Positions 9,011 to 54,408 of a stretch of 64,000 nt of DNA are shown here, in pieces. Location: contig OZ038464.1 of assembly GCA_964036295.1 (NCBI GenBank), positions 616,001 to 680,000 of the forward strand. Reading direction: 5' to 3'. Under the pieces are notes generated by a model. The model ran no database searches, had not been told where the DNA came from, and saw only the letters and a list, made by a program, of their open reading frames with translations. The translations under genes and the position numbers were made by a program. Numbering within the stretch: position 1 is the stretch's first letter; each line of letters starts with the position of its first letter. The stretch is from Plumapathes pennacea (Eukaryota > Cnidaria > Anthozoa > Antipatharia > Myriopathidae).

Positions 9011-9154
9011 AATCGGCACAATATCTCGAGGAAACGATCTGTTTTTCCGAGAAACTTCACTTTCAGCATCTCGCCTTCGAAGAGGGCTGGTGACGAATTC
9101 CGAATTTTTCCGGAAACGATCGGGAAAATTCCGACGATATTTTCGTGGCAACCA
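9011..9154 (-). promoter_or_regulatory. Presumed 5' flank of the FN3 gene, squeezed against the satellite
   Basis: These 144 bases separate the FN3 gene start codon from the first recognisable satellite sequence. They are not satellite and contain small dyads (ttccgaatttttccggaa; gggaaaattccgac). No TATA box was seen. Calling it a promoter is inference from position only. Confidence 0.35.
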
Positions 9155-9860
9155 TCGACAAATTAAAGCATCACACCTCTCGAGCAAAGGAGCCAAAATA
9201 TTAAGCTGCTATATCTCGCCAACGAACGAAAATAGACAACGCAAATGTATTGCAAAAAGTCTTGTTATAGTCCAAGGAAGGTTCCTGAACGCTTCAAGAG
9301 TTTTCAAATTTTGACAAAAGAACCCTGTGTTACAGTCATAGTATTTTGTGAAAATCCGGTCATTTTATGACCTCAAAATCGCATGAAACTTTCAGGAAAA
9401 GTTCGCTTCACTATACCGACGGTTTCTGCATAGTTTTTGTAAACTTTAAGCCCGCGCGTCGTAAGAAATTACAGCAAATTGGAGAAAATCATGCACTAAT
9501 TAAAACATCACACCTCTCGAGCAAAAGAGCCAAATTTAAGCTGCTATATCTCGCCAACGGATGACGATAAATAAAGCAAATGTATTGCAAAAAGTCTTGT
9601 TATAGTCCAAGACAGGATCCCTCAAATTCTCAAGAATTTTCAATCTTTTGACAAAAAACCCTGCGTTATACCCTTAGAATTGAGTCCGATCATATTATGA
9701 CCATCTCAGGATCGCATGAAACTCTTAGGAAGCATTCCTGGAACTATGCCGACGGTGTTTGCATAGTTTTTGTAAACTTTAAGCCCGTGCGTCGCGAGAA
9801 ATAACAGCAAATCATCGACTAATTAAAACATCACACAATTCATAGTTTTAAGCGGTTTAA
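9155..9860 (+). repeat. Left edge of the satellite: diverged subtype units
   Basis: About two units related to the 338-bp satellite but clearly diverged. They carry gtcgtaagaaattacagcaa (or gcgagaaataacagcaaatc) where core units have gtcgtcagatattcgagaaa, 'ccggtcattt' where core units have 'ccaagatttt', and in the last unit 'catagttttaagcggtttta' in place of the ggagcc...gctcc hairpin. These features recur in the units at 52029-53817 on the far side. Confidence 0.85.
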
Positions 9861-12800
9861 ATGCTATAACTCGCCAACAGATAAAGATAGATAAAGCAAA
9901 TGTATTGCAAAAAGTCTTCTAATAGTCTAAGGAAGGTTTCCTGAAAGTTTCAAGAGTTTTCAATTTTTGGTCAAAATCGGCAAAAAACCCTGTCCTATAG
10001 CCTTAGTATTTTGTGAAAATTCCAAGATTTTTCGACCATCTCAGAATCGCATGAAACTTTCAGGAAACGTTCCTGGGACTATGCCGACGGTTTCTGCATA
10101 GTTTTTGTAAACTTTTAGGTCGCGCGTCGTCAGATATTCGAGCAAACCATGCCCTAATTAAAACATCACACCTTTCGCGCAAAGGAGCCAAATATAAGCT
10201 CCTATATCTCGCCAACGGATGAAGATAGATAAAGAAAATGTACAGCAAAAAGTCTTGTAATAGTCTAAGGAAGGTTTCCTGAAAGTTTCAAGAGTTTTCA
10301 ATTTTTGGCCAAAATCGGCAAAAAACCCTGTGCTATAGCCTTAGTATTTTGTGAAAATTCCAAGATTTTTCGACCATCTCAGAATCGCATGAAACTTTCA
10401 GGAAACGTTCCTGGGACTATTCCGACGGATTTTGCATAGTTTTTGTAGACTTTCAGGTCGCGCATCGTCAGATATTCGAGAAAATCATGCCCTAATTAAA
10501 ACATCACACCTTTCGCGCAAAGGAGCCAAATTTAAGCTCCTATATCTCGCCAACGGATGAAGATAGATAAAGCAAATGTATTGCAAAAAGTCTTGTAATA
10601 GTCTAAGGAAGGTTTCCTGAAAGTTTCAAGAGTTTTCAATTTTTGGCCAAAATCGGCAAAAAACCCTGTGCTATAGCCTTAGTATTTTGTGAAAATTCCA
10701 AGATTTTTCAACCATCTTAGAATCGCATGAAACTTTCAGGAAACGTTCCTGGGACTATTCCGACGGATTTTGCATAGTTTTTGTAGACTTTTAGGTCGCG
10801 CGTCGTCAGATATTTGAGAAAATCATGCCCTAATTAAAACATCACACCTTTCGCGCAAAGGAGCCAAATATAAGCTGCTATATCTCGCCAACGGATGAAG
10901 ATAGATAAAGCAAATGTATTGCAAAAAGTCTTGTAATAATCTAAGGAAGGTTTCCTGAAAGTTTCAAGAGTTTTCAATTTTTGGCCAAAATCGGCAAAAA
11001 AACCCTGTGCTATAGCCTTAGTATTTTGTGAAAATTCCAAGATTTCTCAACCATCTCAGAATCGCATGAAACTTTCAGGAAACGTTCCTGGGACTATTCC
11101 GACGGTTTTTGCATAGTTTCTGTAAACTTTTAGGCCGTCCGTCGTCAGATATTCGAGAAAACCATGCCCTAATTAAAACATCACACCTTTCGCGCAAAGG
11201 AGCCAAATTTAAGCTCCTATATCTCGCCAACGGATGAAGATAGATAAAGCAAATGTATTGCAAAAAGTCTTCTAATAGTCTAAGGAAGGTTTCCTGAAAG
11301 TTTCAAGAGTTTTCAATTTTTGGCCAAAATCGGCAAAAAACCCTGTGCTATAGCCTTAGTATTTTGTGAAAATTCCAAGATTTTTCAACCATCTCAGAAT
11401 CGCATGAACCTTTCAGGAAACGTTCCTGGGACTATTCCGACGGTTTTTGCATAGTTTTTGTAAACTTTTAGGCCGTCCGTCGTCAGATTTTCGAGCAAAT
11501 CATGCCCTAATTAAGACATCACACCTTTCGCGCAAAGGAGCCAAATTTAAGCTCCTATATCTCGCCAACGGATGAAGATAGATAAAGCAAATGTATTGCA
11601 AAAAAGTCTTGTAATAGTCTAAGGAAGGTTTCCTGAAAGTTTCAAGAGTTTTCAATTTTTGGCCAAAATCGGCAAAAAACCCTGTGCTATAGCCTTAGTA
11701 TTTTGTGAAAATTCCAAGATTTTTCAACCATCTTGGAATCGCATGAAACTTTCAGGAAACGTTCCTGGGACTATTCCGACGGATTTTGCATAGTTTTTGT
11801 AAACTTTTAGGTCGCGCGTCGTCAGATATTCGAGAAAATCATGCCCTAATTAAAACATCACACCTTTCGCGCAAAGGAGCCAAATATAAGCTCCTATATC
11901 TCGCCAACGGATGAAGATAGATAAAGCAAATGTATTGCAAAAAGTCTTCTAATAGTCTAAGGAAGGTTTCCTGAAAGTTTCAAGAGTTTTCAATTTTTGG
12001 CCAAAATCGGCAAAAAACCCTGTGCTATAGCCTTAGTATTTTGTGAAAATTCCAAGATTTTTCAACCATCTTAGAATCGCATGAAACTTTCAGGAAACGT
12101 TCCTGGGACTATGCCGACGGATTTTGCATAGTTTTTGTAAACTTTTAGGTCCCGCGTCGTCAGATATTCGAGAAAATCATGCCCTAATTAAAACATCACA
12201 CTTTTCGCGCAAAGGAGCCAAATTTAAGCTCCTATATCTCGCCAACGGATGAAGATAGATAAAGCAAATGTATTGCAAAAAGTCTTCTAATAGTCTAAGG
12301 AAGGTTTCCTGAAAGTTTCAAGAGTTTTCAATTTTTGGCCAAAATCGGCAAAAAACCCTGTGCTATAGCCTTAGTATTTTGTGAAAATTCCAAGATTTTT
12401 CAACCATCTCAGTATCACATGAAACTTTCAGGAAACGTTCCTGGGACTATTCCGACGGTTTTTGCATAGTTTTTGTAAACTTTTAGGCCGTCCGTCGTCA
12501 GATATTCGAGCAAATCATGCCATAATTAAGACATCACACCTTTCGCGCAAAGGAGCCAAATTTAAGCTCCTATATCTCGCCAACGGATGAAGATAGATAA
12601 AGCAAATGTATTGCAAAAAAGTCTTCTAATAGTCTAAGGAAGGTTTCCTGAAAGTTTGAAGAGTTTTCAATTTTTGGCCAAAATCGGCAAAAAACCCTGT
12701 GCTATAGCCTTAGTATTTTGTGAAAATTCCAAGATTTTTCGACCATCTCAGAATCGCATGAAACTTTCAGGAAACGTTCCTGGGACTATGCCGACGGTTT

Positions 12801-15800
12801 CTGCATAGTTTTTGTAAACTTTTAGCCCGCGCGTTGTCAGATATTCGAGAAAATCATGCCCTAATTAAAACATCACACCTTTCGCGCAAAGGAGCGAAAT
12901 TTAAGCTCCTATATCTCGCCAACGGATGAAGATAGATAAAGCAAATGTATTGCAAAAAGTCTTCTAATAGTCTAAGGAAGGTTTCCTGAAAGTTTCAAGA
13001 GTTTTCAATTTTTGGCCAAAATCGGCAAAAAACCCTGTGCTATAGCCTTAGTATTTTGTGAAAATTCCAAGATTTTTCAACCATCTCAGAATCGCATGAA
13101 ACTTTCAGGAAACGTTCCTGGGACTATGCCGACGGTTTCTGCATAGTTTTTGTAAGCTTTAAGGTCGCGCGTCGTCAGATATTCGAGAAAATCATGCCCT
13201 AATTAAAACATCACACCTTTCGCGAAAAGGAGCCAAATATAAGCTCCTATATCTCGCCAACGGATGAAGATAGATAAAGCAATTGTATTGCAAAAAGTCT
13301 TGTAATAGTCTAAGGAAGGTTTCCTGAAAGTTTCAAGAGTTTTCAATTTTTGGCCAAAATCGGCAAAAAACCCTGTGCTATAGCCTTAGTATTTTGTGAA
13401 AATTCCAAGATTTTTCAACCATCTCAGAATTGCATGAAACTTTCAGGAAACGTTCCTGGGACTATGCCGACGGTTTCTGCATAGTTTTTGTAAACTTTTA
13501 GCCCTCGCGTCGTCAGATATTCGAGAAAATCATGCCCTAATTAAAACATCACACCTTTCGCGCAAAGGAGCCAAATTTAAGCTCCTATATCTCGCCAACG
13601 GATGAAGATAGATAAAGCAAATGTATTGCAAAAAAGTCTTGTAATAGTCTAAGGAAGGTTTCCTGAAAGTTTCAAGAGTTTTCAATTTTTGGCCAAAATC
13701 GGCAAAAAACCCTGTGCTATAGCCTTAGTATTTTGTGAAAATTCCAAGATTTTTCAACCATCTTGGAATCGCATGAAACTTTCAGGAAACGTTCCTGGGA
13801 CTATTCCGACGGATTTTGCATAATTTTTGTAAACTTTTAGGTCGCGCGTCGTCAGATATTCGAGAAAATCATGCCCTAATTAAAACATCACACCTTTCGC
13901 GCAAGGGAGCCAAATATAAGCTCCTATATCTCGCCAACGGATGAAGATAGATAAAGCAAATGTATTGCAAAAAGTCTTCTAATAGTCTAAGGAAGGTTTC
14001 CTGAAAGTTTCAAGAGTTTTCAATTTTTGGCCAAAATCGGCAAAAAACCCTGTGCTATAGCCTTAGTATTTTGTGAAAATTCCAAGATTTTTCAACCATC
14101 TTAGAATCGCATGAAACTTTCAGGAAACGTTCCTGGGACTATTCCGACGGATTTTGCATAGTTTTTGTAAACTTTTAGGTCCCGCGTCGTCAGATATCTG
14201 AGAAAATCATGCCCTAATTAAAACATCACACTTTTCGCGCAAAGGAGCCAAATTTAAGCTCCTATATCTCGCCAACGGATGAAGATAGATAAAGCAAATG
14301 TATTGCAAAAAGTCTTCTAATAGTCTAAGGAAGGTTTCCTGAAAGTTTCAAGAGTTTTCAATTTTTGGCCAAAATCGGCAAAAAACCCTGTGCTATAGCC
14401 TTAGTATTTTGTGAAAATTCCAAGATTTTTCAACCATCTCAGTATCACATGAAACTTTCAGGAAACGTTCCTGGGACTATGCCGACGGTTTTTGCATAGT
14501 TTTTGTAAACTTTTAGGCCGTCCGTCGTCAGATATTCGATCAAATCATGCCATAATTAAGACATCACACCTTTCGCGCAAAGGAGCCAAATTTAAGCTCC
14601 TATATCTCGCCAACGGATGAAGATAGATAAAGCAAATGTATTGCAAAAAAGTCTTCTAATAGTCTAAGGAAGGTTTCCTGAAAGTTTGAAGAGTTTTCAA
14701 TTTTTGGCCAAAATCGGCAAAAAACCCTGTGCTATAGCCTTAGTATTTTGTGAAAATTCCAAGATTTTTCGACCATCTCAGAATCGCATGAAACTTTCAG
14801 GAAACGTTCCTGGGACTATGCCGACGGTTTCTGCATAGTTTTTGTAAACTTTTAGCCCGCGCGTTGTCAGATATTCGAGAAAATCATGCCCTAATTAAAA
14901 CATCACACCTTTCGCGCAAAGGAGCCAAATTTAAGCTCCTATATCTCGCCAACGGATGAAGATAGATAAAGCAAATGTATTGCAAAAAGTCTTCTAATAG
15001 TCTAAGGAAGGTTTCCTGAAAGTTTCAAGAGTTTTCAATTTTTGGCCAAAATCGGCAAAAAACCCTGTGCTATAGCCTTAGTATTTTGTGAAAATTCCAA
15101 GATTTTTCAACCATCTCAGAATCGCATGAAACTTTCAGGAAACGTTCCTGGGACTATGCCGACGGTTTCTGCATAGTTTTTGTAAGCTTTAAGGTCGCGC
15201 GTCGTCAGATATTCGATCAAATCATGCCCTAATTAAAACATCACACCTTTCGCGAAAAGGAGCCAAATATAAGCTCCTATATCTCGCCAACGGATGAAGA
15301 TAGATAAAGCAATTGTATTGCAAAAAGTCTTGTAATAGTCTAAGGAAGGTTTCCTGAAAGTTTCAAGAGTTTTCAATTTTTGGCCAAAATCGGCAAAAAA
15401 CCCTGTGCTATAGCCTTAGTATTTTGTGAAAATTCCAAGATTTTTCAACCATCTCAGAATTGCATGAAACTTTCAGGAAACGTTCCTGGGACTATGCCGA
15501 CGGTTTCTGCATAGTTTTTGTAAGCTTTTAGGTCGCGCGTCGTCAGATATTCGAGAAAATCATGCCCTAATTAAAACATCACACCTTTCGCGCAAAGGAG
15601 CCAAATTTAAGCTCCTATATCTCGCCAACGGATGAAGATAGATAAAGCAAATGTATTGCAAAAAGTCTTCTAATAGTCTAAGGAAGGTTTCCTGAAAGTT
15701 TCAAGAGTTTTCAATTTTTGGCCAAAATCGGCAAAAAACCCTGTGCTATAGCCTTAGTATTTTGTGAAAATTCCAAGATTTTTCGACCATCTCAGAATCG

Positions 15801-18800
15801 CATGAAACTTTCAGGAAACGTTCCTGGGATTATTCCGACGGATTTTGCATAGTTTTTGTAAACTTTTAGGCCGTCCGTCGTCAGATATTCGAGCAAATCA
15901 TGCCCTAATTAAGACATCACACCTTTCGCGCAAAGGAGCCAAATTTAAGCTCCTATATCTCGCCAACGGATGAAGATAGATAAAGCAAATGTATTGCAAA
16001 AAAGTCTTGTAATAGTCTAAGGAAGGTTTCCTGAAAGTTTCAAGAGTTTTCAATTTTTGGCCAAAATCGGCAAAAAACCCTGTGCTATAGCCTTAGTATT
16101 TTGTGAAAATTCCAAGATTTTTCAACCATCTCAGTATCACATGAAACTTTCAGGAAACGTTCCTGGGACTATGCCGACGGTTTTTGCATAGTTTTTGTAA
16201 ACTTTTAGGCCGTCCGTCGTCAGATATTCGATCAAATCATGCCATAATTAAGACATCACACCTTTCGCGCAAAGGAGCCAAATTTAAGCTCCTATATCTC
16301 GCCAACGGATGAAGATAGATAAAGCAAATGTATTGCAAAAAAGTCTTCTAATAGTCTAAGGAAGGTTTCCTGAAAGTTTGAAGAGTTTTCAATTTTTGGC
16401 CAAAATCGGCAAAAAACCCTGTGCTATAGCCTTAGTATTTTGTGAAAATTCCAAGATTTTTCGACCATCTCAGAATCGCATGAAACTTTCAGGAAACGTT
16501 CCTGGGACTATGCCGACGGTTTCTGCATAGTTTTTGTAAACTTTTAGCCCGCGCGTTGTCAGATATTCGAGAAAATCATGCCCTAATTAAAACATCACAC
16601 CTTTCGCGCAAAGGAGCCAAATTTAAGCTCCTATATCTCGCCAACGGATGAAGATAGATAAAGCAAATGTATTGCAAAAAGTCTTCTAATAGTCTAAGGA
16701 AGGTTTCCTGAAAGTTTCAAGAGTTTTCAATTTTTGGCCAAAATCGGCAAAAAACCCTGTGCTATAGCCTTAGTATTTTGTGAAAATTCCAAGATTTTTC
16801 AACCATCTCAGAATCGCATGAAACTTTCAGGAAACGTTCCTGGGACTATGCCGACGGTTTCTGCATAGTTTTTGTAAGCTTTTAGGTCGCGCGTCGTCAG
16901 ATATTCGATCAAATCATGCCCTAATTAAAACATCACACCTTTCGCGAAAAGGAGCCAAATATAAGCTCCTATATCTCGCCAACGGATGAAGATAGATAAA
17001 GCAATTGTATTGCAAAAAGTCTTGTAATAGTCTAAGGAAGGTTTCCTGAAAGTTTCAAGAGTTTTCAATTTTTGGCCAAAATCGGCAAAAAACCCTGTGC
17101 TATAGCCTTAGTATTTTGTGAAAATTCCAAGATTTTTCAACCATCTCAGAATTGCATGAAACTTTCAGGAAACGTTCCTGGGACTATGCCGACGGTTTCT
17201 GCATAGTTTTTGTAAGCTTTTAGGTCGCGCGTCGTCAGATATTCGAGAAAATCATGCCCTAATTAAAACATCACACCTTTCGCGCAAAGGAGCCAAATTT
17301 AAGCTCCTATATCTCGCCAACGGATGAAGATAGATAAAGCAAATGTATTGCAAAAAGTCTTCTAATAGTCTAAGGAAGGTTTCCTGAAAGTTTCAAGAGT
17401 TTTCAATTTTTGGCCAAAATCGGCAAAAAACCCTGTGCTATAGCCTTAGTATTTTGTGAAAATTCCAAGATTTTTCGACCATCTCAGAATCGCATGAAAC
17501 TTTCAGGAAACGTTCCTGGGATTATTCCGACGGATTTTGCATAGTTTTTGTAAACTTTTAGGCCGTCCGTCGTCAGATATTCGAGCAAATCATGCCCTAA
17601 TTAAGACATCACACCTTTCGCGCAAAGGAGCCAAATTTAAGCTCCTATATCTCGCCAACGGATGAAGATAGATAAAGCAAATGTATTGCAAAAAAGTCTT
17701 GTAATAGTCTAAGGAAGGTTTCCTGAAAGTTTCAAGAGTTTTCAATTTTTGGCCAAAATCGGCAAAAAACCCTGTGCTATAGCCTTAGTATTTTGTGAAA
17801 ATTCCAAGATTTTTCAACCATCTTGGAATCGCATGAAACTTTCAGGAAACGTTCCTGGGACTATTCCGACGGATTTTGCATAGTTTTTGTAAACTTTTAG
17901 GTCGCGCGTCGTCAGATATTCGAGAAAATCATGCCCTAATTAAAACATCACACCTTTCGCGCAAAGGAGCCAAATATAAGCTCCTATATCTCGCCAACGG
18001 ATGAAGATAGATAAAGCAAATGTATTGCAAAAAGTCTTCTAATAGTCTAAGGAAGGTTTCCTGAAAGTTTCAAGAGTTTTCAATTTTTGGCCAAAATCGG
18101 CAAAAAACCCTGTGCTATAGCCTTAGTATTTTGTGAAAATTCCAAGATTTTTCAACCATCTTAGAATCGCATGAAACTTTCAGGAAACGTTCCTGGGACT
18201 ATGCCGACGGATTTTGCATAGTTTTTGTAAACTTTTAGGTCCCGCGTCGTCAGATATTCGAGAAAATCATGCCCTAATTAAAACATCACACTTTTCGCGC
18301 AAAGGAGCCAAATTTAAGCTCCTATATCTCGCCAACGGATGAAGATAGATAAAGCAAATGTATTGCAAAAAGTCTTCTAATAGTCTAAGGAAGGTTTCCT
18401 GAAAGTTTCAAGAGTTTTCAATTTTTGGCCAAAATCGGCAAAAAACCCTGTGCTATAGCCTTAGTATTTTGTGAAAATTCCAAGATTTTTCAACCATCTC
18501 AGTATCACATGAAACTTTCAGGAAACGTTCCTGGGACTATGCCGACGGTTTTTGCATAGTTTTTGTAAACTTTTAGGCCGTCCGTCGTCAGATATTCGAG
18601 CAAATCATGCCATAATTAAGACATCACACCTTTCGCGCAAAGGAGCCAAATTTAAGCTCCTATATCTCGCCAACGGATGAAGATAGATAAAGCAAATGTA
18701 TTGCAAAAAAGTCTTCTAATAGTCTAAGGAAGGTTTCCTGAAAGTTTGAAGAGTTTTAAATTTTTGGCCAAAATCGGCAAAAAACCCTGTGCTATAGCCT

Positions 18801-21800
18801 TAGTATTTTGTGAAAATTCCAAGATTTTTCGACCATCTCAGAATCGCATGAAACTTTCAGGAAACGTTCCTGGGACTATGCCGACGGTTTCTGCATAGTT
18901 TTTGTAAACTTTTAACCCGCGCGTTGTCAGATATTCGAGAAAATCATGCCCTAATTAAAACATCACACCTTTCGCGCAAAGGAGCCAAATTTAAGCTCCT
19001 ATATCTCGCCAACGGATGAAGATAGATAAAGCAAATGTATTGCAAAAAAGTCTTCTAATAGTCTAAGGAAGGTTTCCTGAAAGTTTGAAGAGTTTTAAAT
19101 TTTTGGCCAAAATCGGCAAAAAACCCTGTGCTATAGCCTTAGTATTTTGTGAAAATTCCAAGATTTTTCGACCATCTCAGAATCGCATGAAACTTTCAGG
19201 AAACGTTCCTGGGACTATGCCGACGGTTTCTGCATAGTTTTTGTAAACTTTTAACCCGCGCGTTGTCAGATATTCGAGAAAATCATGCCCTAATTAAAAC
19301 ATCACACCTTTCGCGCAAAGGAGCCAAATTTAAGCTCCTATATCTCGCCAACGGATGAAGATAGATAAAGCAAATGTATTGCAAAAAGTCTTCTAATAGT
19401 CTAAGGAAGGTTTCCTGAAAGTTTCAAGAGTTTTCAATTTTTGGCCAAAATCGGCAAAAAACCCTGTGCTATAGCCTTAGTATTTTGTGAAAATTCCAAG
19501 ATTTTTCAACCATCTTGGAATCGCATAAAACTTTCAGGAAACGTTCCTGGGACTATTCCGACGGATTTTGCATAGTTTTTGTAAACTTTTAGGTCGCGCG
19601 TCGTCAGATATTCGAGAAAATCATGCCCTAATTAAAACATCACACTTTTCGCGCAAAGGAGCCAAATTTAAGCTCCTATATCTCGCCAACGGATGAAGAT
19701 AGATAAAGCAAATGTATTGCAAAAAGTCTTCTAATAGTCTGAGGAAGGTTTCCTGAAAGTTTCAAGAGTTTTCAATTTTTGGCCAAAATCGGCAAAAAAC
19801 CCTGTGCTATAGCCTTAGTATTTTGTGAAAATTCCAAGATTTTTCAACCATCTCAGAATCGCATGAAACTTTCAGGAAACGTTCCTGGGGCTATTCCGAC
19901 GGATTTTGTATAGTTTGTGTAAACTTTTAGCCCTCGCGTCGTCAGATATTCGAGAAAATCATGCCCTAATTAAAACATCACACCTTTCGCGCAAAGGAGC
20001 CAAATTTAAGCTCCTATATCTCGCCAACGGATGAAGATAGATAAAGCAAATATATTGCAAAAAGTCTTCTAATAGTCTAAGGAAGGTTTCCTGAAAGTTT
20101 CAAGAGTTTTCAATTTTTGGCCAAAATCGGCAAAAAACCCTGTGCTATAGCCTTAGTATTTTGTGAAAATTCGAAGATTTTTCGACCATCTCAGAATCGC
20201 ATGAAACTTTCAGGAAACGTTCCTGGGACTATTCCGACGGATTTTGCATAGTTTTTGTAAACTTTTAGGTCGCGCGTCGTCAGATATTCGAGAAAATCAT
20301 GCCCTAATTAAAACATCACACCTTTCGCGCAAAGGAGCCAAATATAAGCTCCTATATTTCGCCAACGGATGAAGATAGATAAAGCAAATGTATTGCAAAA
20401 AGTCTTCTAATAGTCTAAGGAAGGTTTCCTGAAAGTTTCAAGAGTTTTCAATTTTTGGCCAAAATCGGCAAAAAACCCTGTGCTATAGCCTTAGTATTTT
20501 GTGAAAATTCCAAGATTTTTCGACCATCTCAGAATCGCATGAAACTTTCAGGAATCGTTCCTGGGACTATGCCGACGGATTTTGCATAGTTTTTGTAAAC
20601 TTTTAGGCCGTTCGTCGTCAGATATTCGAGAAAATCATGCCCTAATTAAAACATCACACCTTTCGCGCAAAGGAGCCAAATTTAAGCTCCTATATCTCGC
20701 CAACGGATGAAGATAGATAAAGCAAATGTATTGCAAAAAGTCTTCTAATAGTTTAAGGAAGGTTTCCTGAAAGTTTCAAGAGTTTTCAATTTTTGGCCAA
20801 AATCGGCAGAAAACCCTGTGCTATAGCCTTAGTATTTTGTGAAAATTCCAAGATTTTTCAACCATCTCAGAATCGCATGAAACTTTCAGGAAACGTTCCT
20901 GGGACTATGCCAACGGTTTCTGCATAGTTTTTGTAAACTTTTAGCCCGCCCGTCGTCAGATATTCGAGAAAATCATGCCCTAATTAAAACATCACACCTT
21001 TCGCGCAAAGGAGCAAAATATAAGCTCCTATATCTCGCCAACGGATTAAGATAGATAAAGCAAATGTATTGCAAAAATTCTTCTAATAGTCTAAGGAAGG
21101 TTTCCTGAAAGTTTCAAGAGTTTTCAATTTTTGGCCAAAATCGGCAAAAAACCCTGTGCTATAGCCTTAGTATTTTGTGAAAATTCCAAGATTTTTCGAC
21201 CATCTCAGAATCGCATGAAACTTTCAGGAAACGTTCCTGGGACTATTCGGATGGATTTTGCATAGTTTTTGAAAACTTTTAGGTCGCGCGTCGTCAGATA
21301 TCTGAGAAAATCATGCCCTACTTAAAACATCACACCTTTCGCGAAAAGGAGCCAAATATAAGCTCCTATATCTCGCCAACGGATGAAGATAGATAAAGCA
21401 AATGTATTGCAAAAAGTCTTGTAATAGTCTAAGGAAGGTTTCCTGAAAGTTTCAAGAGTTTTCAATTTTTGGCCAAAATCGGCAGAAAACCCTGTGCTAT
21501 AGCCATAGTATTTTGTGAAAATTCCAAGATTTTTCAACCATCTTAGAATCGCATGAAACTTTCAGGAAACGTTCCTGGGACTATTCCGACGGATTCTGCA
21601 TAGTTTTTGTAAACTTTTAGCCCGCCCGTCGTCAGATATTCGAGAAAATCATGCCCTAATTAAAACATCACACCTTTCGCGAAAAGGAGCCAAATATAAG
21701 CTCCTATATCTCGCCAACGGATTAAGATAGATAAAGCAAATGTATTGCAAAAAGTCTTCTAATAGTCTAAGGAAGGTTTCCTGAAAGTTTCAAGAGTTTT

Positions 21801-39800: not shown

Positions 39801-42800
39801 AATCGCATGAAACTTTCAGGAAACGTTCCTGGGACTATTCCGACGGATTGTGCATAGTTTTTGTAAACTTTTAGGCCGTTCGTCGTCAGATATTCGAGAA
39901 AATCATGCCCTAATTAAAACATCACACCTTTCGCGCAAAGGAGCCAAATATAAGCTCCTATATCTCGCCAACGGATGAAGATAGATAAAGCAAATCTATT
40001 GCAAAAAGTCTTCTAATAGTCTAAGGAAGGTTTCCTGAAAGTTTCAAGAGTTTTCAATTTTTGGCCAAAATCGGCAAAAAACCCTGTTCTATAGCCTTAG
40101 TATTTTGTGAAAATTCCAAGATTTTTCGACCATCTCAGAATCGCATGAAACTTTCAGGAAACGTTCCTGGGACTATGCCGACGGTTTGTGCATAGTTTTT
40201 GTAAACTTTTAGCCCGCGCGTCCTCAGATATTTGAGAAAATCATGCCCTAATTAATACATCACACCTTTCGTGCAAAGGAGCCAAATTTAAGCTCTTATA
40301 TCTCGCTAACGGATGAAGATAGATAAAGCAAATGTATTGCAAAAAGTCTTGTAATAGTCTAAGGAAGGTTTCCTGAAAGCTTCAAGAGTTTTCAATTTTT
40401 GACCAAAATCGGCAAAAAACCCTGTGCTATAGCCTTAGTATTTTGTGAAAATTCCAAGATTTTTCGACCATCTCAGAATCGCATGAAACTTTCAGGAAAC
40501 GTTCCTGGGACTATGCCGACGGTTTTTGCATAGTTTTTGTAAACTTTTAGGCCGTCCGTCGTCAGATATTCGAGAAAATCATGCCCTAATTAAAACATCA
40601 CACCTTTCGCGCAAAGGAGCCAAATATAAGCTCCTATATCTCGCCAACGGATGAAGATAGATAAAGCAAATGTATTGCAAAAAGTCTTCTAATAGTCTAA
40701 GGAAGGTTTCCTGAAAGTTTCAAGAGTTTTCAATTTTTGGCCAAAATCGGCAAAAAACCCTGTGCTATAGCCTTAGTATTTTGTGAAAATTCCAAGATTT
40801 TTCGATCATCTCAGAATCACATGAAACTTTCAGGAAACGTTCCTGGGACTATTCCGACGGATTGTGCATAGTTTTTGTAAACTTTTAGGCCGTTCGTCGT
40901 CAGATATTTGAGAAAATCATGCCCTAATTAAAACATCACACCTTTCGCGCAAAGGAGCCAAATATAAGCTCCTATATCTCGCCAACGGATGAAGATAGAT
41001 AAAGCAAATGTATTGCAAAAAGTCTTGTAATAGTCTAAGGAAGGTTTCCTGAAAGTTTCAAGAGTTTTCAATTTTTGGCCAAAATCGGCAAAAAACCCTG
41101 TGCTATAGCCTTAGTATTTTGTGAAAATTCCAAGATTTTTCGACCATCTCAGAATCGCATGAAACTTTCAGGAAACGTTCCTGGGACTATGGCGACGGTT
41201 TGTGCATAGTTTTTGTAAACTTTTAGCCCGCGCGTCCTCAGATATTTGAGAAAATCATGCCCTAATTAATACATCACACCTTTCGTGCAAAGGAGCCAAA
41301 TTTAAGCTCTTATATCTCGCTAACGGATGAAGATAGATAAAGCAAATGTATTGCAAAAAGTCTTGTAATAGTCTAAGGAAGGTTTCCTGAAAGCTTCAAG
41401 AGTTTTCAATTTTTGACCAAAATCGGCAAAAAACCCTGTGCTATAGCCTTAGTATTTTGTGAAAATTCCAAGATTTTTCGACCATCTCAGAATCGCATGA
41501 AACTTTCAGGAAACGTTCCAGGGACTATGCCGACGGTTTTTGCATAGTTTTTGTAAACTTTTAGGCCGTCCGTCGTCAGATATTCGAGAAAATCATGCCC
41601 TAATTAAAACATCACACCTTTCGCGCAAAGGAGCCAAATATAAGCTCCTATATCTCGCCAACGGATGAAGATAGATAAAGCAAATGTATTGCAAAAAGTC
41701 TTGTAATAGTCTAAGGAAGGTTTCCTGAAAGTTTCAAGAGTTTTCAATTTTTGGCCAAAATCGGCAAAAAACCCTGTGCTATAGCCTTAGTATTTTGTGA
41801 AAATTCCAAGATTTTTCGACCATCTCAGAATCGCATGAAACTTTCAGGAAACGTTCCTGGGACTATGCCGACGGTTTTTGCATAGTTTTTGTAAACTTTT
41901 AGGCTGTTCGTCGTCAGATATTCGAGAAAATCATGCCCTAATTAAAACATCACACCTTTCGCGTAAAGGAGCCAAATTTAAGCTCCTATATCTCGCCAAC
42001 GGATGAAGATAGATAAAGCAAATGTATTGCAAAAAGTCTTGTAATAGTCTAAGGAAGGTTTCCTGAAAGTTTCAAGAGTTTTCAATTTTTGGCCAAAATC
42101 GGCAAAAAACCCTTTGCTAATGCCTTAGTATTTTGTGAAAATTCCAAGATTTTTCGACCATCTCAGAATCGCATGAAAGTTTCCGGAAACGTTCCTGGGA
42201 CTATGCCGACGGTTTATGCATAGTTTTTGTAAACTTTTAGCCCGCGCGTCCTCAGATCTACGAGCAAATCATGCCATAATTAAAACATCACACCTTTCGC
42301 GCAAAGGAGCCAAATTTAAGCTCCTATATCTCGCCAACGGATGAAGATAGATAAAGCAAATGTATTGCAAAAAGCCTTTTAATAGTCTAAGCATGGTTTC
42401 CTGAAAGTTTCAAAAGTTTTCAATTTTTGGCCAAAATCGGCAAAATACCGTTTGCTATAGCCTTAATATTTTGTCAAAACTTGAAGATTTTTCGACCATC
42501 TCAGAATCGCATGAAAGTTTCCGGAAACGTTCCTGGGACTATGCCGACGGTTTCTGCATAGTTTTAGTAAACTTTTAGCCCTCGCGTCGTCAGATATTCG
42601 AGAAAAGTTGAGCAAATCATGCCATAATTAAAACATCACACGTTTCGCTCAAAAGAGCCAAATTTAAGCTCCTATATCTCGCCAACGGATGAAGATAGAT
42701 AAAGCAAATGTATTGCAAAAAGTCTTCTAATAGTTTAAGGAAGGTTTCCTGAAAGTTTCAAGAGTTTTCTATTTGTGGCCAAAATCGGCAAAAAACCCTG

Positions 42801-44845
42801 TGCTATAGCCCTAGTATTTTGTGAAAATTCTAAGATTTTTCAACCATCTCAGAATCGCATGAAACTTTCAGGAAACGTTCCTGGGATTATGCCGACGGTT
42901 TATGCATAGTTTTTATTAACTTTTAGCTCGCTCGTCCTCAGATATTCGAGCAAATCATGCCCTAATTAAAACATCACACCTTTCGCGCAAAGGAGCCAAA
43001 TTTAATCTCCTATATCTCGCCAACAAATGAAGATAGATAAAGCAAATGTATTGCAAAAAGTCTTCTAATAGTTTAAGGAAGGTTTCCTGAAAGTTTCAAG
43101 AGTTTTCAATTTTTGGCCAAAATCGGCAAAAAACCCTGTGCTATAGCCTTAGTATTTTGTGAAAATTCCAAGATTTTTCGACCATCTCAGAATCGCATGA
43201 AACTTTCAGGAAACGTTCCTGGGACTATGCCGACGGTTTTTGCATAGTTTTTGTAAACTTTTAGGCTGTTCGTCGTCAGATATTCGAGAAAATCATGCCC
43301 TAATTAAAACATCACACCTTTCGCGCAAAGGAGCCAAATTTAAGCTCCTATATCTCGCCAACGGATGAAGATAGATAAAGCAAATGTATTGCAAAAAGTC
43401 TTCTAATAGTCTAAGGAAGGTTTCCTGAAAGTTTCAAGAGTTTTCAATTTTTGGCCAAAATCGGCAAAAAACCCTTTGCTATTGCCTTAGTATTTTGTGA
43501 AAATTCCAAGATTTTTCGACCATCTCAGAATCGCATGAAAGTTTCCGGAAACGTTCCTGGGACTATGCCGACGGTTTATGCATAGTTTTTGTAAACTTTT
43601 AGCCCGCGCGTCCTCAGATCTACGAGCAAATCATGCCATAATTAAAACATCACACCTTTCGCGCAAAGGAGCCAAATTTAAGCTCCTATATCTCGCCAAC
43701 GGATGAAGATAGATAAAGCAAATGTATTGCAAAAAGCCTTTTAATAGTCTAAGCATGGTTTCCTGAAAGTTTCAAGAGTTTTCAATTTTTGGCCAAAATC
43801 GGCAAAATACCGTTTGCTATAGCCTTAATATTTTGTCAAAACTTGAAGATTTTTCGACCATCTCAGAATCGCATGAAAGTTTCCGGAAACGTTCCTGGGA
43901 CTATGCCGACGGTTTCTGCATAGTTTTAGTAAACTTTTAGCCCTCGCGTCGTCAGATATTCGAGAAAAGTTGAGCAAATCATGCCATAATTAAAACATCA
44001 CACGTTTCGCTCAAAAGAGCCAAATTTAAGCTCCTATATCTCGCCAACGGATGAAGATAGATAAAGCAAATGTATTGCAAAAAGTCTTCTAATAGTTTAA
44101 GGAAGGTTTCCTGAAAGTTTCAAGAGTTTTCTATTTGTGGCCAAAATCGGCAAAAAACCCTGTGCTATAGCCCTAGTATTTTGTGAAAATTCTAAGATTT
44201 TTCAACCATCTCAGAATCGCATGAAACTTTCAGGAAACGTTCCTGGGATTATGCCGACGGTTTATGCATAGTTTTTATTAACTTTCAGCTCGCTCGTCCT
44301 CAGATATTCGAGCAAATCATGCCCTAATTAAAACATCACACCTTTCGCGCAAAGGAGCCAAATTTAATCTCCTATATCTCGCCAACAAATGAAGATAGAT
44401 AAAGCAAATGTATTGCAAAAAGTCTTCTAATAGTTTAAGGAAGGTTTCCTGAAAGTTTCAAGAGTTTTCAATTTGTGGCCAAAATCGGCAAAAAACCCTG
44501 TGCTATAGCCTTAGTATTTTGTGAAAATTCTAAGATTTTTCAACCATCTCAGAATCGCATGAAACTTTCAGGAAACGTTCCTGGGACTATGCCGACGGTT
44601 TCTGCATAGTTTTTGTTAACTTTTAGCTCGCTCGTCGTCAGATATTTGAGCAAATCATGCCCTAATTAAAACATCACACCTTTCGCGCAAAGGAGCCAAA
44701 TTTAAGCTCCTATATCTCGCCAACGAATGAAGATAGATAAAGCAAATGTATTGCAAAAAGTCTACTAATAGTCTAAGGAAGGTTTCCTGAAAGTTTCAAG
44801 AGTTTTCAATTTTTGGCCAAAATCGGCAAAAAACCCTGTGCTATA
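9861..44845 (+). repeat. Main 338-bp satellite array, about 103 head-to-tail units
   Basis: The period is measured from the atgaaactttcaggaaacg landmark: 10051, 10389, 10727 and 11066 give steps of 338, 338 and 339. The array continues without a break to 44845. Each unit holds, in order, gtcttctaatagtctaagga, a TTTTGGCCAAAA palindrome, tgctatagccttagtatttt, the atgaaactttcaggaaacg landmark, gccgacggtttctgcatagt, a variable gtcgcgcgtcgtcagatatt segment, taattaaaacatcacacctt, an aggagc...gctcct hairpin and tatctcgccaacggatgaag. Neighbouring units differ by only a few substitutions. Because 338 is not a multiple of three, reading frames shift from unit to unit; the 60-70-residue open frames inside are not credible genes. 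The size, tandem order and homogeneity fit a heterochromatic, possibly centromeric or pericentromeric, satellite, but location on the chromosome is inference. Confidence 0.97.
42601..44590 (+). repeat. Four-unit higher-order repeat marked by an insertion unit
   Basis: A unit with extra bases (agaaaagttgagcaaatcat) occurs at 42601 and again at 43963, an offset of 1362 bp or four units. The same offset links the 'cagatctacgagcaaatcat' units near 42255 and 43617. The two blocks share rare variants (tttgtggcc, 'aatctcc', 'caacaaatg'), so one is a recent copy of the other. Confidence 0.8.
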
Positions 44846-44866
44846 ACTGTGCTAACCCTGTGCTAC
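44846..44866. other. Filler at the satellite orientation switch
   Basis: Plus-oriented satellite stops after 'ccctgtgctata' at 44845 and inverted satellite starts with gttttaattagtgcatga at 44867. The 21 bases between are made of repeated 'ctgtgcta' and 'aaccctgtgcta' pieces copied from the adjacent unit, as expected from template switching or microhomology-mediated joining. Confidence 0.75.
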
Positions 44867-47800
44867 GTTTTAATTAGTGCATGAATTGCTCGAATTTGTT
44901 CGAATTTCTTACGACGCGCGGGCTAAAAGTTTATAAAAACTATGCAAAAACCGTCGGCATAGTCCCAGGAACGTTTCATGAAAGTTTCATGCGATTCTGA
45001 GATGGTCGAAAAATCTTGGAATTTTCACAAAATACTAAAGCTATAGCACAGGGTTTTTTACCGATTTTAACCAAAAATTGAAAACTCTTGAAATTTTCAG
45101 GAAACCTTGCTTAAACTATTACAAGACTTTTGTAATACATTTGCTTTATCTATCTTCATCCGTTGGCGAGATATAGGAGCCTAAATTTGGCTCCTTTTCG
45201 CGAAAGGTGTGATGTTTTAATCAGGGCATGATTTGCTCGAATATCTGACGACGCGCAAGCTAAAAGTTTGCAAAAACTTTGCAACAACCGTCGGCATAGT
45301 CCCAGGAACGTTTACTGAAAGTTTCATGCGATTCTGAGATGGTCGAAAAATGTTGGAATTTTCACAAAATACTAAGGCTATAGCACAGGGTTTTTTATCG
45401 ATTTTAACCAAAAATTGAAAACTCTTGAAACTTTCAGGAAACCTTCCTTAAAGTATTACAAGACTTTTGTAATACGTTTGCTTTATCAATCTTCATTCGT
45501 TGGCGAGATATAGGAGCTTAAATTTGGCTCCTTTTCTCGAAAGGTGTGATTTTTTAATCAGAGAATGTGTTGCTCGAGTATCTGACTTCGCGCGGGCTAA
45601 AAGTTTACAAAAACTATGCAAAAACCGTCGGCATAGTCCCAGGAACGTTTACTAAAAGTTTCATGCGATTCTGAGATGGTCGAAAAATCTTGGAATTTTC
45701 ACAAATACTAAGGCTATAGCACAGGGTTTTTTGCCGATTTTGGCCAAAAATTGAAAACTCTTGAAACTTTCAGGAAACCTTGCTTAGACTATTACAAGAC
45801 TTTTTGCAATACATTTGCTTTATATATCTTCATCCGTTGGCGAGATATAATAGCTTAAATTTGGCTCCTTTGCGCGAAAAGTGTGATGTTTTATTTAGGC
45901 CATGATTTGCTCAAATATCTGACGACGCGCGGGCTAAAAGTTTACAAAAACTATACAAAAACCGTCGCCATAGTCCCAGGAACGTTTCCTGAAAGTTTCA
46001 TGCGATTCTGAGATGGTCAAAAAATCTTGGAATTTTCACAAAATACTAAGGCTATAGCACAGGGTTTTTTTGCCGATTTTGGTTAAAAATTGAAAACTCT
46101 TGAAACTTTCAAGAAACCTTTCTTAGACTATTACAGGACTTTTTGAAATACATTTGCTTTATCTATCTTCATCCGTTGGCGAGATATAGGAGCTTATATT
46201 TGGCTCCTTTGCGCGAAAGGTATGATATTTTAATTGGTGCATGATTTGCAGCTAGAATATCTGACGAAGCGCGCGCTAAAAGTTTACAAAAACTATGCAT
46301 AAACCGTCGGCATAGTCCCAGGAACGTTTCCTGAAAGTTTCATGCGATTCTGAGATGGTCGAAAAATCTTGGAATTTTCACAAAATACTAAGGCTATAGC
46401 ACAGGGTTTTTTACCGATTTTAACCAAAAATTGAAAACTCTTGAAACTTTCAGGAAACCTTGCTTAAACTATTACAAGACTTTTGTAATACGTTTGCTTT
46501 ATCTATCTTCATCCGTTGGCGAGATATAGGAGCTTTAATTTGGCTCCTTTTCTCGAAAGGTGTGATGTTTTAATCAGGGCATGTGTTGCTCGAATATCTG
46601 ACTTCGCGCGGGCTAAAAGTTTACAAAAACTATGCAAAAACCGGCGGCATAGTCCCAGGAACGTTTAGTAAAAGTTTCATGCGCTTCTGAGATGGTCGAA
46701 AAATCTTGGAATTTTCACAAAATACTAAGGCTATAGCACAGGGTTTTTTGCCGATTTTGGCCAAAAATTGAAAACTCTTGAAACTTTCAGGAAACCTTGC
46801 TTAGACTATTACAAGACTTTTTGCAATACATTTGCTTTATCTATCTTCATCCGTTGGCGAGATATAATAGCTTAAATTTAGCTCCTTTGCGCGAAAGGTG
46901 TGATGTTTAATTGGTGCATGATTTGCTAGAATATCTGACGAGGCGCGCGCTAAAAGTTTACAAAAACTATGCATAAACCGTCGGCATAGTCCCAGGAACG
47001 TTTCCTGAAAGTTTCATGCGATTCTGAGATGGTCGAATAATCTTGGAATTTTCACAAAATACTAAGGCTATAGCACAGGGTTTTTTGCCGATTTTGGCCA
47101 CAAATTGAAAACTCTTGAAACTTTCAGGAAACCTTCCTTAGACTATTACAAGACTTTTTGCAATACATTTGCTTTATATATCTTCATCCGTTGGCGAGAT
47201 ATAATAGCTTAAATTTAGCTCCTTTGCGCGAAAGGTGTGATGTTTTAATTATGGCAAGATTTTCGCGAATATCTGACGACGCGCGGGCTAAAAGTTTACA
47301 AAAACTATGCAAAAACCGTCGACGTTGTCCCAGGAACCTTTCCTGAAAGTTTCGTGCGATTCTGAGATGGTCGAATAATCTTGGAATTTTCACAAAATAC
47401 TAAGGCTATAGCACAGGGTTTTTTTCGCCGATTTTGGCCAAAAATTGAAAACTCTTGAAACTTTCAGGAAACCTTCCTTAGACTATTACAAGACTTTCTG
47501 CAACACATTTGCTTTATATATCTTCATCCGTTGGCGAGATATAATAGCTTAAATTTAGCTCCTTTTCGCGAAAGGTGTGATGTTTAATTGGTGCATGATT
47601 TGCTAAAATATCTGACGACGCGCGGGCTAAAAGATTACAAAAACTATGCAAAAACCGTTGGCATAGTCCCAGGAACGTTTCCTGAAAGTTTCATGCGATT
47701 CTGAGATGGTCGAAAAATCTTGGAATTTTCACAAAATACTAAGCCTATAGCATAAGGTTTTCTTCGCCGATTTTGGCCAAAAATTGAAAACTCCTGAATA

Positions 47801-49963
47801 TTTCAGGAAACCTTGCTTAGACTATTACAAGACTTTTTGCAATACATTTGCTTTATCTATCTTCATCCTTTGGCGAGATATAGGAGCTTAAATTTGGCTC
47901 CTTTGCGCGAAAGGTGTGATGTTTTAATTGGTGCATGATTTGCTCAAATATCTGACGACGCGCGGGCTAAAAGTTTACAAAAACTATACACAAACCGTCG
48001 CCATAGTCCCAGGAACGTTTCCTGAAAGTTTCATGCGATTCTGAGATGGTCGAAAAATCTTGGAATTTTCACAAAATACTAAGGCTATAGCACAGGGTTT
48101 TTTGCCGATTTTGGCCAAAAATTGAAAACTCTTGAAACTTTCAGGAAACATTTCTTAGACTATTACAGGACTTTTTGAAATACATTTGCTTTATCTATCT
48201 TCATCCGTTGGCGAGATATAGGAGCTTAAATTTGGCTCCTTTGCGCGAAAGGTGTGATGTTTTAATTGCTGCATGATTTTCTAGAATATCTGACGACGCG
48301 CGGGCTAAAAGTTTAAAAAAACTATGCATAAACCGTCGGCATAGTCCCAGGAACGTTTCCTGAAAGTTTCATGCAATTCTGAGATGGTCGAAAAATCTTG
48401 GAATTTTCACAAAATACTAAGGCTATAGCACAGGGTTTTTTGCCGATTTTGGCCAAAAATTGAAAACTCTTGAAACTTTCAATAAACCTTCCTTAGACTA
48501 TTACAAGACTTTTTGCAATACATTTGCTTTACCTATCTTCATCCGTTGGCGAGATATAGGAGCTTAAACTTGGCTCCTTTGCGCGAAAGGTGTGATGTTT
48601 TAATTGGTGCATGATTTGCTGGAATATCTGACGACGCGCGGGCTATAAGTTTACAAAAACTAAGCAAAAACCGTCGGCATAGTCCCAGGAACGTTTCCTG
48701 AAAGTTTCATGCGATTCCGAGATGGTCGAAAAATCTTGGAATTTTCACAAAATACTAAGGCTATAGCACAGGGTTTTTTGCCGATTTTGGCCAAAAATTG
48801 AAAACTCTTGAAACTTTCAGGAAACTTTCCTTAGACTATTACAAGACTTTTTGCAATACATTTGCTTTATCTATCTTCATCCGTTGGCGAGATATAGCAG
48901 CTTAAATTTGGCTCTTTTCCGCGAAAGGTTTGATGTTTTAATTGGTGCATGATTTGCTCGAATATCTGACGACGCGCGGGCTAAAAGTTTACAAAAACTA
49001 TGCTAAAACCGTCGGCATAGTCCCAGGAACGTTTCCTGAAAGTTTCATGCGATTCTGAGATGATCGAAAAATCTTGGAATTTTTACAAAATACTAAGGCT
49101 ATAGCGCAGGGTTTTTTGCCGATTTTGGCCAAAAATTGAAAACTCTTGAAACTTTCAGGACACCTTGCTTAGACTATTATAAGACTTTTTGCAATACATT
49201 TGCTTTATCTATCTTCATCCGTTGGCGAGATATAGGAGCTTAAATTTGGCTCCTTTGCGCGAAAGGTGTGATGTTTTCATTCGTGCATGATTTGCTCAAA
49301 TATCTGACGACGCGCGGGCTAAAAGTTTACAAAAACTATGCACAAACCGTCGGCATAGTCCCAAGAACGTTTCCTGAAAGTTTCATGCGATTCTGAGGTG
49401 GTTGAAAAATCTTGGAATTTTGACAAAATACTAAGGCTATAGCACAAGGTTTTTTGCCGATTTTGGCCAAAAATTGAAAACTCTTGAAACTTTCAGGAAA
49501 CCTTCCTTAGACTATTAGAAAACTTTTTCCAATACATTTACTTTATCTATCTTCATCCGTTGGCGAGATATAGGAGCTTAAATTTGGCTCCTTTGCGCGA
49601 AAGGTGTGATGTTTTAATTAGGGCATGATTTTCTCGAATATCTGACGACGCGCGGGCTAAAAGTTTACGAAAACTATGCAAAAACCGTCGGCATAGTCCC
49701 AGGAACGTTTCCTGAAAGTTTCATGCGATTCTAAGATGGTCGAAAAATCTTGGAATTTTCACAAAATACTAAGGCTATAGCACAGGGTTTTTGCCGATTT
49801 TGGCCAAAAATTGAAAACTCTTGAAACTTTCAGGAAACCTTGCTTAGACTATTACAAGACTTTTTGCAATGCATTTGCTTTATCTATCTTCATCCGTTGG
49901 CGAGATATAGGAGCTTAAATTTGGCTCCTTTGCGCGAAAGGTGTGATGTTTTAATTAGGGCAT
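44867..49963 (-). repeat. Inverted block of the 338-bp satellite, about 15 units
   Basis: The same satellite is read on the minus strand: cttcatccgttggcgagata, ccgtcggcatagtcccagga and the inverted hairpin recur about every 338 bases. Units here differ from each other and from the main array more than main-array units do, suggesting less recent homogenisation. The right end is a sharp junction at 49963/49964, where 'ttaattagggcat' meets 'cttgtaatagg' in the original orientation. Confidence 0.95.
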
Positions 49964-50546
49964 CTTGTAATAGGCTAAGGAATGTTTCCTGAAAGTTTCA
50001 AGAGTTTTCAATTGTTGGCCAAAATCGGCAAAAAACCCTGTGCTATAAATAGCCTTAGCATTTTGTCAAAATTCCAAGATTTTTCGACCATCTGAGAATG
50101 GCATGAAACTTTTAGGAAACGTTCCTGGGACTATGCCGACGGTTTTTGCATAGTTTTTGTAATCTTTTAGCCCACGCGTCGTCAGAAATTCGAGCAAATC
50201 ATGCACTAATTAAAACGTCACACCTTTCGCGAAAAGGAGCCAAATTTAAGCTCCTATATCTCGCCAACGGATGAAGATAGATAATGGAAATGTATTGCAA
50301 AAAGTCTTGTAATAGTCTAAGTAAGGTTTCCTGAAAGTTTCAAGAGTTTTCAATTTTTGGCCAAAGTCGGCAAAAATCCTTCGTCTATAGCCTTAGCATT
50401 TTGTCAAAATCCAGTCATTTTTCGAACAACCAGAATCTCATAAAACTTTCAGGAAACGTTCCTGGGACTATGCCGACGGTTTTTGCATAGTTTTTGTAAA
50501 CTTTAAGCCCGCTCGTCGTGAGAAATTACAGCAAATCATCGACTAA
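49964..50546 (+). repeat. Satellite in original orientation, about 1.7 units, up to the Helitron insertion
   Basis: Plus-strand satellite resumes. The second part already has edge-type variants (ccagtcatttttcgaac, gtcgtgagaaattacagc). It stops after gcaaatcatcgactaa at 50546, exactly where the Helitron-like element begins; the expected continuation, ttaaaacatcac, reappears at 52029. Confidence 0.9.
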
Positions 50547-53817: not shown

Positions 53818-54139
53818 GCGTTACCCGCTTCTGTTCATGTCGCTTTCGATCGGCATTCATGCGCTGTTTTCTCTGCGGAGTTGTCTGCGTTACCCGCTTC
53901 TGTTCATGTCGCTTTCGATCGGCATTCATGCGCTGTTTTCTTTGCGGAGTTGTTTCTTCGGCACGCTTCTGTTTATGATGCTGTCGATCATAACAGGATT
54001 GTCGCCTTTTCTCGAGACGAATTTGGCGTTGTTCGCTTGTTTCACGATTTCGCCTTGCTCGTGCCTGTTCCTTTCTCATTTGAAGACGAGCTTCGCGAGA
54101 CTGTTGTGTTTCAAGTTTTTCAGTTTTTCAGTTTTCCAT
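53818..54139 (-). pseudogene. Decayed Arg/Gln-rich protein fragment of the Helitron, copy B
   Basis: The ATG at 54139 is followed by an in-frame TGA at codon 4, with three extra bases relative to copy A. From the next Met (54079) an open frame reads MRKEQARARRNRETSEQRQI, then two near-identical 23-residue repeats built on TPQRKQRMNADRKRHEQKR. The frame then runs across the junction into satellite DNA and stops at 53795. The repeats are basic, low in hydrophobic residues and probably disordered or coiled-coil. This is the better preserved of the two copies, but it lacks all downstream domains. Confidence 0.6.
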
Positions 54140-54408
54140 TTTCGTGAACACAGCTACGATATATTGTTGCTTCGTTCAAATTAAATGGTTCGTTCAAATT
54201 CCGAGTAAAACAACTACAGAGCACACGTGATCGATCCGGCCTTTGTTATTGGTTAGCAGGGTAACCGCGCCTAAAGTCGTACGCCAGACAGAATGACTGA
54301 CTGATAGACGAACGTTAAATTTCGAGATGGCGGCAGGCTTGGAGTCCCCAAGTAGGCGGTATATTACTGCGTTAGTGTCATGATTATTTCCCTCACTTCG
54401 TTCGGGGA
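53818..54408 (-). mobile_element. Helitron-like element, copy B (3' truncated)
   Basis: The 5' end at 54408 is the same TCCCCGAACGAAGTGAGGGA terminus, again preceded by A. The leader matches copy A closely (aatttcgagatggcg, ccaagtaggcggtata and gtgatcgatccggcctttgt on the plus strand) apart from small indels. On the other side the element stops inside the basic-repeat coding region at 53818, directly against satellite, with no CTRR end. About 0.9 kb present in copy A is missing, so copy B was cut by deletion or unequal exchange. Confidence 0.75.

What the first reader, a model, noticed from the sequence alone, without database searches (positions are those of the whole stretch)
9155..50546. 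A 41-kb satellite with a dinucleosome-sized 338-bp unit between two divergent genes
Sequence shows about 120 units of about 338 bp, twice a 169-bp nucleosomal repeat, filling the space between the FN3 membrane-protein gene and the FAM185A-like gene. Known biology: centromeric and pericentromeric satellites often have about 170 or 340 bp units. Inference: this could be a heterochromatin or centromere core lying close to ordinary genes.
Basis: partly seen in the sequence, partly recalled or inferred. Interest (0 to 1): 0.72.

Follow-up and report, generated by a model that had tools for sequence, protein, structure and literature searches.

The report
Genome-wide satellite repeat between two genes
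A long block of tandem copies of a 338-letter repeat really does sit between two genes of a sea-anemone-like animal, but it is one array of a repeat family scattered along many chromosomes and next to chromosome ends, so nothing marks it as a centromere.

Summary
The array is real: 120 near-full units of about 338 bp at 9.15-50.54 kb, 105 forward and 15 inverted. It does not end at 50546. A 1,482-bp Helitron is inserted there exactly at a unit junction; the family continues to 53,817, then comes an older 374-bp relative. The "dinucleosome, 2 x 169 bp" reading fails: no 169-bp sub-repeat, relatives have units of 324-348 bp, and there is no 10-bp AA/TT periodicity. The unit holds a roughly 208-bp imperfect palindrome. 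The host is a hexacoral. The family has about 14,300 units (~4.8 Mb, ~1.7% of the assembly). I saw 52 array places on 10 contigs, 13 of them along this chromosome, including one directly inside its telomere. Most arrays are more alike within than between. The same Helitron entered the same unit junction at three places independently, so it does not carry the arrays. A centromere core is unlikely; heterochromatin is untested. Best reading: a dispersed interstitial and subtelomeric satellite that turns over locally by unequal exchange and expanded between two genes. Ordinary in kind.

The parts
9153..9863 (+). left edge of the array: two old units, 82-84% identical to the consensus, and a transition
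9864..44845 (+). main array of 338-bp satellite units; 102 units with mean pairwise divergence 3.9%
44894..49956 (-). inverted sub-array, 15 near-full units
49963..50546 (+). forward units up to the Helitron insertion point
50547..52028 (-). Helitron, 1,482 bp, begins TC, ends CTAG with a 3' hairpin, inserted between A and T at a unit junction; later than the array
52029..53817 (+). continuation of the array as 334-bp units, about 5.4 copies, 87-90% to the consensus
53818..54408 (-). 5' part of a sister Helitron, cut off where it meets the array
54466..55778 (+). older relative of the satellite, 374-bp units, 2.7 copies

Best explanation
This is one array of an abundant non-coding satellite family dispersed along chromosome arms and subtelomeres of a hexacorallian cnidarian. 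Shown: tandem lattice, genome-wide copies, an array directly inside a telomere, homogenisation array by array in most arrays, a young centre with older edges, an internal inversion and a later Helitron insertion. Inferred: the array grew and stays homogeneous by unequal exchange or gene conversion within itself, in the space between two divergently transcribed genes, without a sequence-specific host function. Inferred: new arrays are seeded by rare ectopic or circular-DNA integration of a few units, not by a transposon that carries them.
For: Copy number: 14,281 matches of a conserved 28-mer at up to 3 mismatches, control 0. Places: 50 collected plus C6 and C11. Within-array divergence 1.3-10.2% in 14 groups of five or more units; in 10 of these it is below every value against other arrays. 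A variant private to one array runs through it at C4:2.01-2.03 Mb. Main array: mean pairwise divergence 3.9% with no decay over distance, identical units at block offsets. Edge units 82-84% against 97.5% in the centre. All 5 listed 374-type matches on C1 lie 1.7-2.3 kb from 338-type matches. No ORF of 90 aa or more inside.
Against: In 4 of 14 groups (L042, L044, L050, inverted part of the window) divergence within is not below that to some other group. Only 6 of 14 non-telomeric flanks carry the 374-type relative. The seeding route was not observed. No chromatin, RNA or population data; a function cannot be excluded.
Confidence: 0.77

Rival explanations
1. Subtelomeric satellite that spread inward: the family lives at chromosome ends, and the window array, 0.63 Mb from the C3 telomere, is an internalised subtelomeric block.
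For: C3 starts telomere, subtelomeric repeat, then 335-337-bp units. The C1 end has satellite then subtelomeric repeat; search hits point the same way at the C2 and C7 ends. All 12 listed places on C1 and all 7 on C2 lie in the outer parts.
Against: Places on C3, C4, C7 and C8 include interstitial ones. The telomere-adjacent 335-bp type is far from the window type (12.4% against 5.5% for an interstitial C1 array).
Confidence: 0.12
2. Centromere or pericentromere core of this chromosome.
For: Abundant satellite, palindromic unit and an inverted sub-array, features also seen in putative centromeric Tribolium madens satellites (PMC13081366, passages).
Against: 13 array places on C3 alone over 23 Mb and others on 9 more contigs; no CENP-B-like box better than shuffles (2 mismatches of 9, matched by 120 of 300 shuffles; motif recalled); flanking genes.
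Confidence: 0.04
3. Helitron-borne satellite: arrays are carried and dispersed by the Helitron that touches the array, as suspected for Tyba and oyster repeats (PMC10048060, passages).
For: The same Helitron family lies inside satellite at three places (C3, C6, C11), at the same unit junction and in the same orientation. Its 5' end has 957 + 925 copies at up to 2 mismatches.
Against: At all three places satellite lies on both sides, so the element sits inside arrays rather than around them. The three copies are not each other's closest: C3 is nearest to a non-satellite copy (98.4%, L061), C6 to another (99.5%, L063), against 95.2% between C3 and C6. That means separate insertions with a shared target preference. 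Its ends were absent from the 11 other array-bearing loci (9 arrays, not every edge fetched).
Confidence: 0.03
4. Transcribed hairpin satellite that silences or regulates its neighbours: each unit RNA folds on itself and feeds a small-RNA pathway.
For: 208-bp palindrome; folds better than 200 of 200 shuffles as DNA and 100 of 100 as RNA; present in nine of nine family consensuses, two only marginally.
Against: No covariation beyond shuffles: 93.0% of cells paired against 92.9%, one pair changed on both sides. No transcript data.
Confidence: 0.04

Closest known systems
Dispersed satellites in euchromatin, e.g. oyster, locust, Drosophila (review PMC10048060, passages read)
   Same: many arrays along chromosome arms, non-coding, homogenised by array
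   Different: here arrays reach tens of kb, and no carrier Helitron was found around arrays in the fetched loci
Tribolium madens TmSat1/TmSat2 (PMC13081366, passages read)
   Same: dyad symmetry within a unit (TmSat2) and inverted sub-arrays
   Different: those fill megabase (peri)centromeric regions; here arrays are scattered and about 1.7% of the assembly
Tyba of holocentric Rhynchospora (passages in PMC10048060)
   Same: many arrays per chromosome; contact with a Helitron
   Different: no evidence of centromere function here; a stony coral karyotype is metacentric and submetacentric (PMC9005458, passages)
Subtelomeric satellites in general (recalled)
   Same: arrays beside telomere-linked repeats at C3 and C1 ends
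   Different: also many interstitial arrays

Membership tests
Satellite DNA | head-to-tail tandem array, abundant, non-coding | tested here: met
Satellite DNA | units more alike within an array than between arrays | tested here: met
   10 of 14 groups clearly, 4 not
Centromeric satellite | largely confined to one region per chromosome | tested here: not met
   13 places on C3
Centromeric satellite | CENP-A chromatin | not testable with these tools
   no ChIP data
Centromeric satellite | CENP-B box (not required in all species) | tested here: not met
   best 2 mismatches of 9, as good in 120 of 300 shuffles; motif recalled
Nucleosome-length (2 x 169) satellite | 169-bp sub-repeat | tested here: not met
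   lag 169 at background; direct halves score 17, shuffles 11.1 +/- 2.2, maximum 24
Nucleosome-length (2 x 169) satellite | nucleosome phasing on the unit | not testable with these tools
   no MNase data; AA/TT periodicity best at 9.2, reached by 29% of 300 shuffles
Subtelomeric satellite | next to telomere-linked repeats | tested here: met
   C3 start and C1 end fetched; C2 and C7 by hits only
Subtelomeric satellite | confined to chromosome ends | tested here: not met
Helitron (insert 50547-52028) | 5' TC, 3' CTRR, hairpin near the 3' end, insertion at A/T without target duplication | tested here: met
   empty site equals intact unit junction
Helitron (insert 50547-52028) | Rep/helicase protein | not tested
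   this copy is too short; no autonomous copy was searched for
Helitron-borne tandem repeat | arrays lie between the ends of the element | tested here: not met
   satellite is outside the element at 3 of 3 places; ends absent at 11 of 11 other array loci scanned

The most novel reading that the evidence does not exclude
The many palindromic-unit arrays per chromosome act together as a repeat-based, multi-site centromere-like or chromosome-organising system in an anthozoan, analogous to Tyba in Rhynchospora, with telomere-adjacent arrays as its outer members.
Probability: 0.03. Interest if true: 0.85.

Novelty: new member of a known kind. Interest (0 to 1): 0.3.

Why it matters
It gives a consensus, copy number, chromosomal positions and turnover pattern for a major satellite of a hexacoral, hence FISH probes and a marker set. 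It is a clean counter-example to reading a 340-bp unit as a nucleosome or centromere signature. Three independent Helitron insertions at one unit junction show a reusable target site inside a satellite and give time-stamps within arrays. Titles and abstracts listed by eight searches of an open-access library showed no description of this satellite; PMC9005458 (passages) mentions repeats in corals shared with human satellite DNA, which is a different thing.

Tried and rejected
Dinucleosome: rejected. Helitron carriage: at first rejected because the Helitron-satellite junction seemed unique; on checking, two of the near matches proved to be the same junction in other arrays, so I fetched both sides and six control copies. 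Satellite lies on both sides, and the copies are not each other's nearest, so carriage stays rejected but on better grounds. With 26-27 A/T sites per unit and about 31 insertions expected in 1.7% of the genome, finding two further insertions at one chosen junction is not statistically striking by itself (my estimate). Palindrome kept by selection: no support. Dominant higher-order repeat in the main array: none; offsets 4, 11 and 18 are only slightly closer. CENP-B box: no. Viral-contig scan with a core 35-mer: 0 matches. Shared flanks as a transposon capsule: degenerate satellite, one 60-bp match and one 239-bp stretch only. Species name: not found; Metridium senile (390.9 Mb, 17.44 kb mitochondrion; passages) and Diadumene lineata (313 Mb, 17.6 kb; abstract in a listing) do not fit 290 Mb and 17,711 bp.

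Full report
Observation. The array is in the sequence as described. TRF reports a 338-bp period over 9161-44845 and 44894-49963, and self-identity peaks at 338 and its multiples. BLAST with a consensus built from 35 units gives 120 units aligned over at least 300 bp, 105 forward and 15 reverse, with 69 of 119 spacings exactly 338. No ORF of 90 aa or more lies wholly inside 9315-50546.

Corrections to the anatomy. The stretch 44894-49956 is inverted. On the minus strand the next 1,482 bp begin TC and end CTAG, with a hairpin just before the end, and sit between A and T. Joining the flanks gives the unit junction that is intact at 52355, 52689 and elsewhere. That is a Helitron; its 5' end has 957 + 925 copies in the genome at up to 2 mismatches. 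Beyond it the family continues as 334-bp units to 53817, then a truncated sister Helitron, then 2.7 units of a 374-bp relative. The satellite proper spans about 9.15-53.8 kb. Tandem repeats of other kinds (90-bp and 33-bp units) continue to 60.1 kb.

Unit structure. There is no 169-bp half-unit: identity at lag 169 is background, and the direct alignment of the two halves scores 17 against 11.1 +/- 2.2 in 200 shuffles, maximum 24. There is an imperfect palindrome over about unit positions 81-288, with 30-bp arms pairing at 28 of 30 positions; the inverted-repeat score is 58 against 22.9 +/- 4.5 in 200 shuffles, maximum 44. One 208-bp copy folds better than all 200 shuffles as DNA, and one whole unit better than all 100 shuffles as RNA. 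The palindrome score exceeds the maximum of 100 shuffles in nine of nine family consensuses, only just in the window's 334-bp (41 against 40) and 374-bp (55 against 53) ones. Across 20 diverse units the arm pairing shows no covariation beyond shuffles, so descent is enough to explain it. No 10-bp AA/TT periodicity was seen: best period 9.2, reached by 29% of 300 shuffles.

Host. The window is C3:616001-680000 of a 290-Mb, 24-contig assembly. Contig C24 (17,711 bp) is a mitochondrial genome with nad5 split around nad1 and nad3, and cox1 split around a LAGLIDADG-like ORF (gene names from my reading of the translations). PMC10167242 (passages) reports nad1 and nad3 within nad5 for Actiniaria, Antipatharia, Zoantharia and Relicanthus. 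The host is therefore most likely a hexacoral of one of these groups; I could not name the species.

Genome-wide distribution. A 28-mer of the 338-type gives 4,015 + 2,970 matches (up to 2 mismatches, control 0). A better conserved 28-mer gives 7,695 + 6,586 = 14,281 (up to 3 mismatches, control 0); on the window and 11 loci it finds 317 places where BLAST finds 308 units. At 338 bp that is about 4.8 Mb or 1.7% of the assembly. Listings are cut at about 100 rows, so positions are a sample. Collected over plus the window and the C3 start they give 50 distinct places: C1 12, C2 7, C3 13, C4 8, C5 3, C7 3, C8 2, C10 2. On C3 they span 0 to 23.3 Mb of 28.3. On C1 the listed places are at 0.4-7.9 and 40.4-42.4 Mb of 42.4, on C2 at 30.7-37.9 Mb of 37.9.

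Chromosome ends. C3 begins with telomere repeats, then a subtelomeric repeat, then 335-337-bp units from about 0.8 kb. At the C1 end a fetched 2.1-kb piece shows satellite followed by the same subtelomeric repeat; it lies 42 kb from the contig end and the telomere was not fetched. Hits at the C2 and C7 ends point the same way but were not fetched.

Turnover. In 14 groups of five or more units (some are two pieces of one array), divergence within a group is 1.3-10.2%. Between groups it is mostly 5-15.6%, with 3.5% between two pieces of one array and 4.4% between L045 and L048. In 10 groups the value within is below every value against other arrays; in L042, L044, L050 and the inverted part of the window it is not. 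A variant private to one array runs through it at C4:2.01-2.03 Mb. In the main array, similarity does not decay with distance, and identical units recur at block offsets, mostly 18, 11 and 5. The two left-edge units are 82-84% identical to the consensus against 97.5% in the centre. The 374-type relative has 93 genome matches. All 5 on C1 lie 1.7-2.3 kb from listed 338-type matches, on both sides of one array, but others form arrays of their own, e.g. C5:22.67-22.68 Mb. Of 14 non-telomeric flanks, 6 carry 374-type units and 8 do not. Orientation changes occur in 5 of 12 array-bearing sequences (window, L043, L047, L049, L050).

The Helitron. Two near matches of the junction search, on C6 and C11, turned out to be the same element type inside 334-type satellite, at the same unit junction and orientation. 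At both, satellite lies on the two sides of an element of 1,523 or 1,484 bp. The three copies are not each other's nearest: the C3 copy is 98.4% identical to a non-satellite copy on C1 (L061), the C6 copy 99.5% to another (L063), against 95.2% between C3 and C6; six control copies were fetched, five with both ends found and all without satellite flanks in the few bases seen. So these are separate insertions into existing arrays, at a shared target site. In the 11 other array-bearing loci (9 arrays, not every edge) no Helitron end was found.

Mechanism. The evidence fits local expansion and homogenisation by unequal exchange or conversion, ageing outward from the centre, plus rare seeding of new places. 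The seeding route is inferred. The position between divergent genes makes an effect on their upstream space possible but untested.

Comparison. It resembles dispersed satellites reviewed in PMC10048060 (passages). It shares unit-level and array-level dyad symmetry with Tribolium madens satellites (PMC13081366, passages) but is not a megabase centromeric block. A stony coral karyotype is metacentric and submetacentric (PMC9005458, passages), which argues against a multi-site centromere but comes from another order. Verdict: a real, well-formed satellite, ordinary in kind; the centromere and dinucleosome readings are not supported.

Noticed in passing
window 55845-60092: Two further tandem arrays follow the satellite: a 90-bp unit (39.6 copies) and a 33-bp unit (19.3 copies) that share the start CAGTATATAACCTGA, leading up to the gene on the + strand.
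   Followed up: no
window 53795-54127 (-): The 5' part of the sister Helitron encodes 23-aa repeats with a weak match to Pfam STPRs (E 0.0019, below the cut-off).
   Followed up: partly
L051 1-482 (C3 start): Telomere repeats run CCCTAA up to about 370 and then TTAGGG, a head-to-head switch; biology or assembly artefact.
   Followed up: no
L051 480-800; hits on C1, C3, C4, C5, C7, C8, C9: A subtelomeric repeat of about 144-bp steps, containing TTAGGG-like pieces, is shared by several chromosome ends.
   Followed up: partly
window 44846-44893: The forward-to-inverted junction carries a short filler with repeated CCCTGTGCTA pieces, suggestive of template switching.
   Followed up: no
L057 (C1:26325000-26325800): Several Helitron 5' ends in a row, each with a short stretch of the same element, apparently nested or tandem insertions.
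   Followed up: no
window 9153-55778 against outer flanks: CpG is not depleted in satellite and Helitron stretches (observed/expected 1.08-1.5) but is in the gene flanks (0.71 and 0.43).
   Followed up: partly
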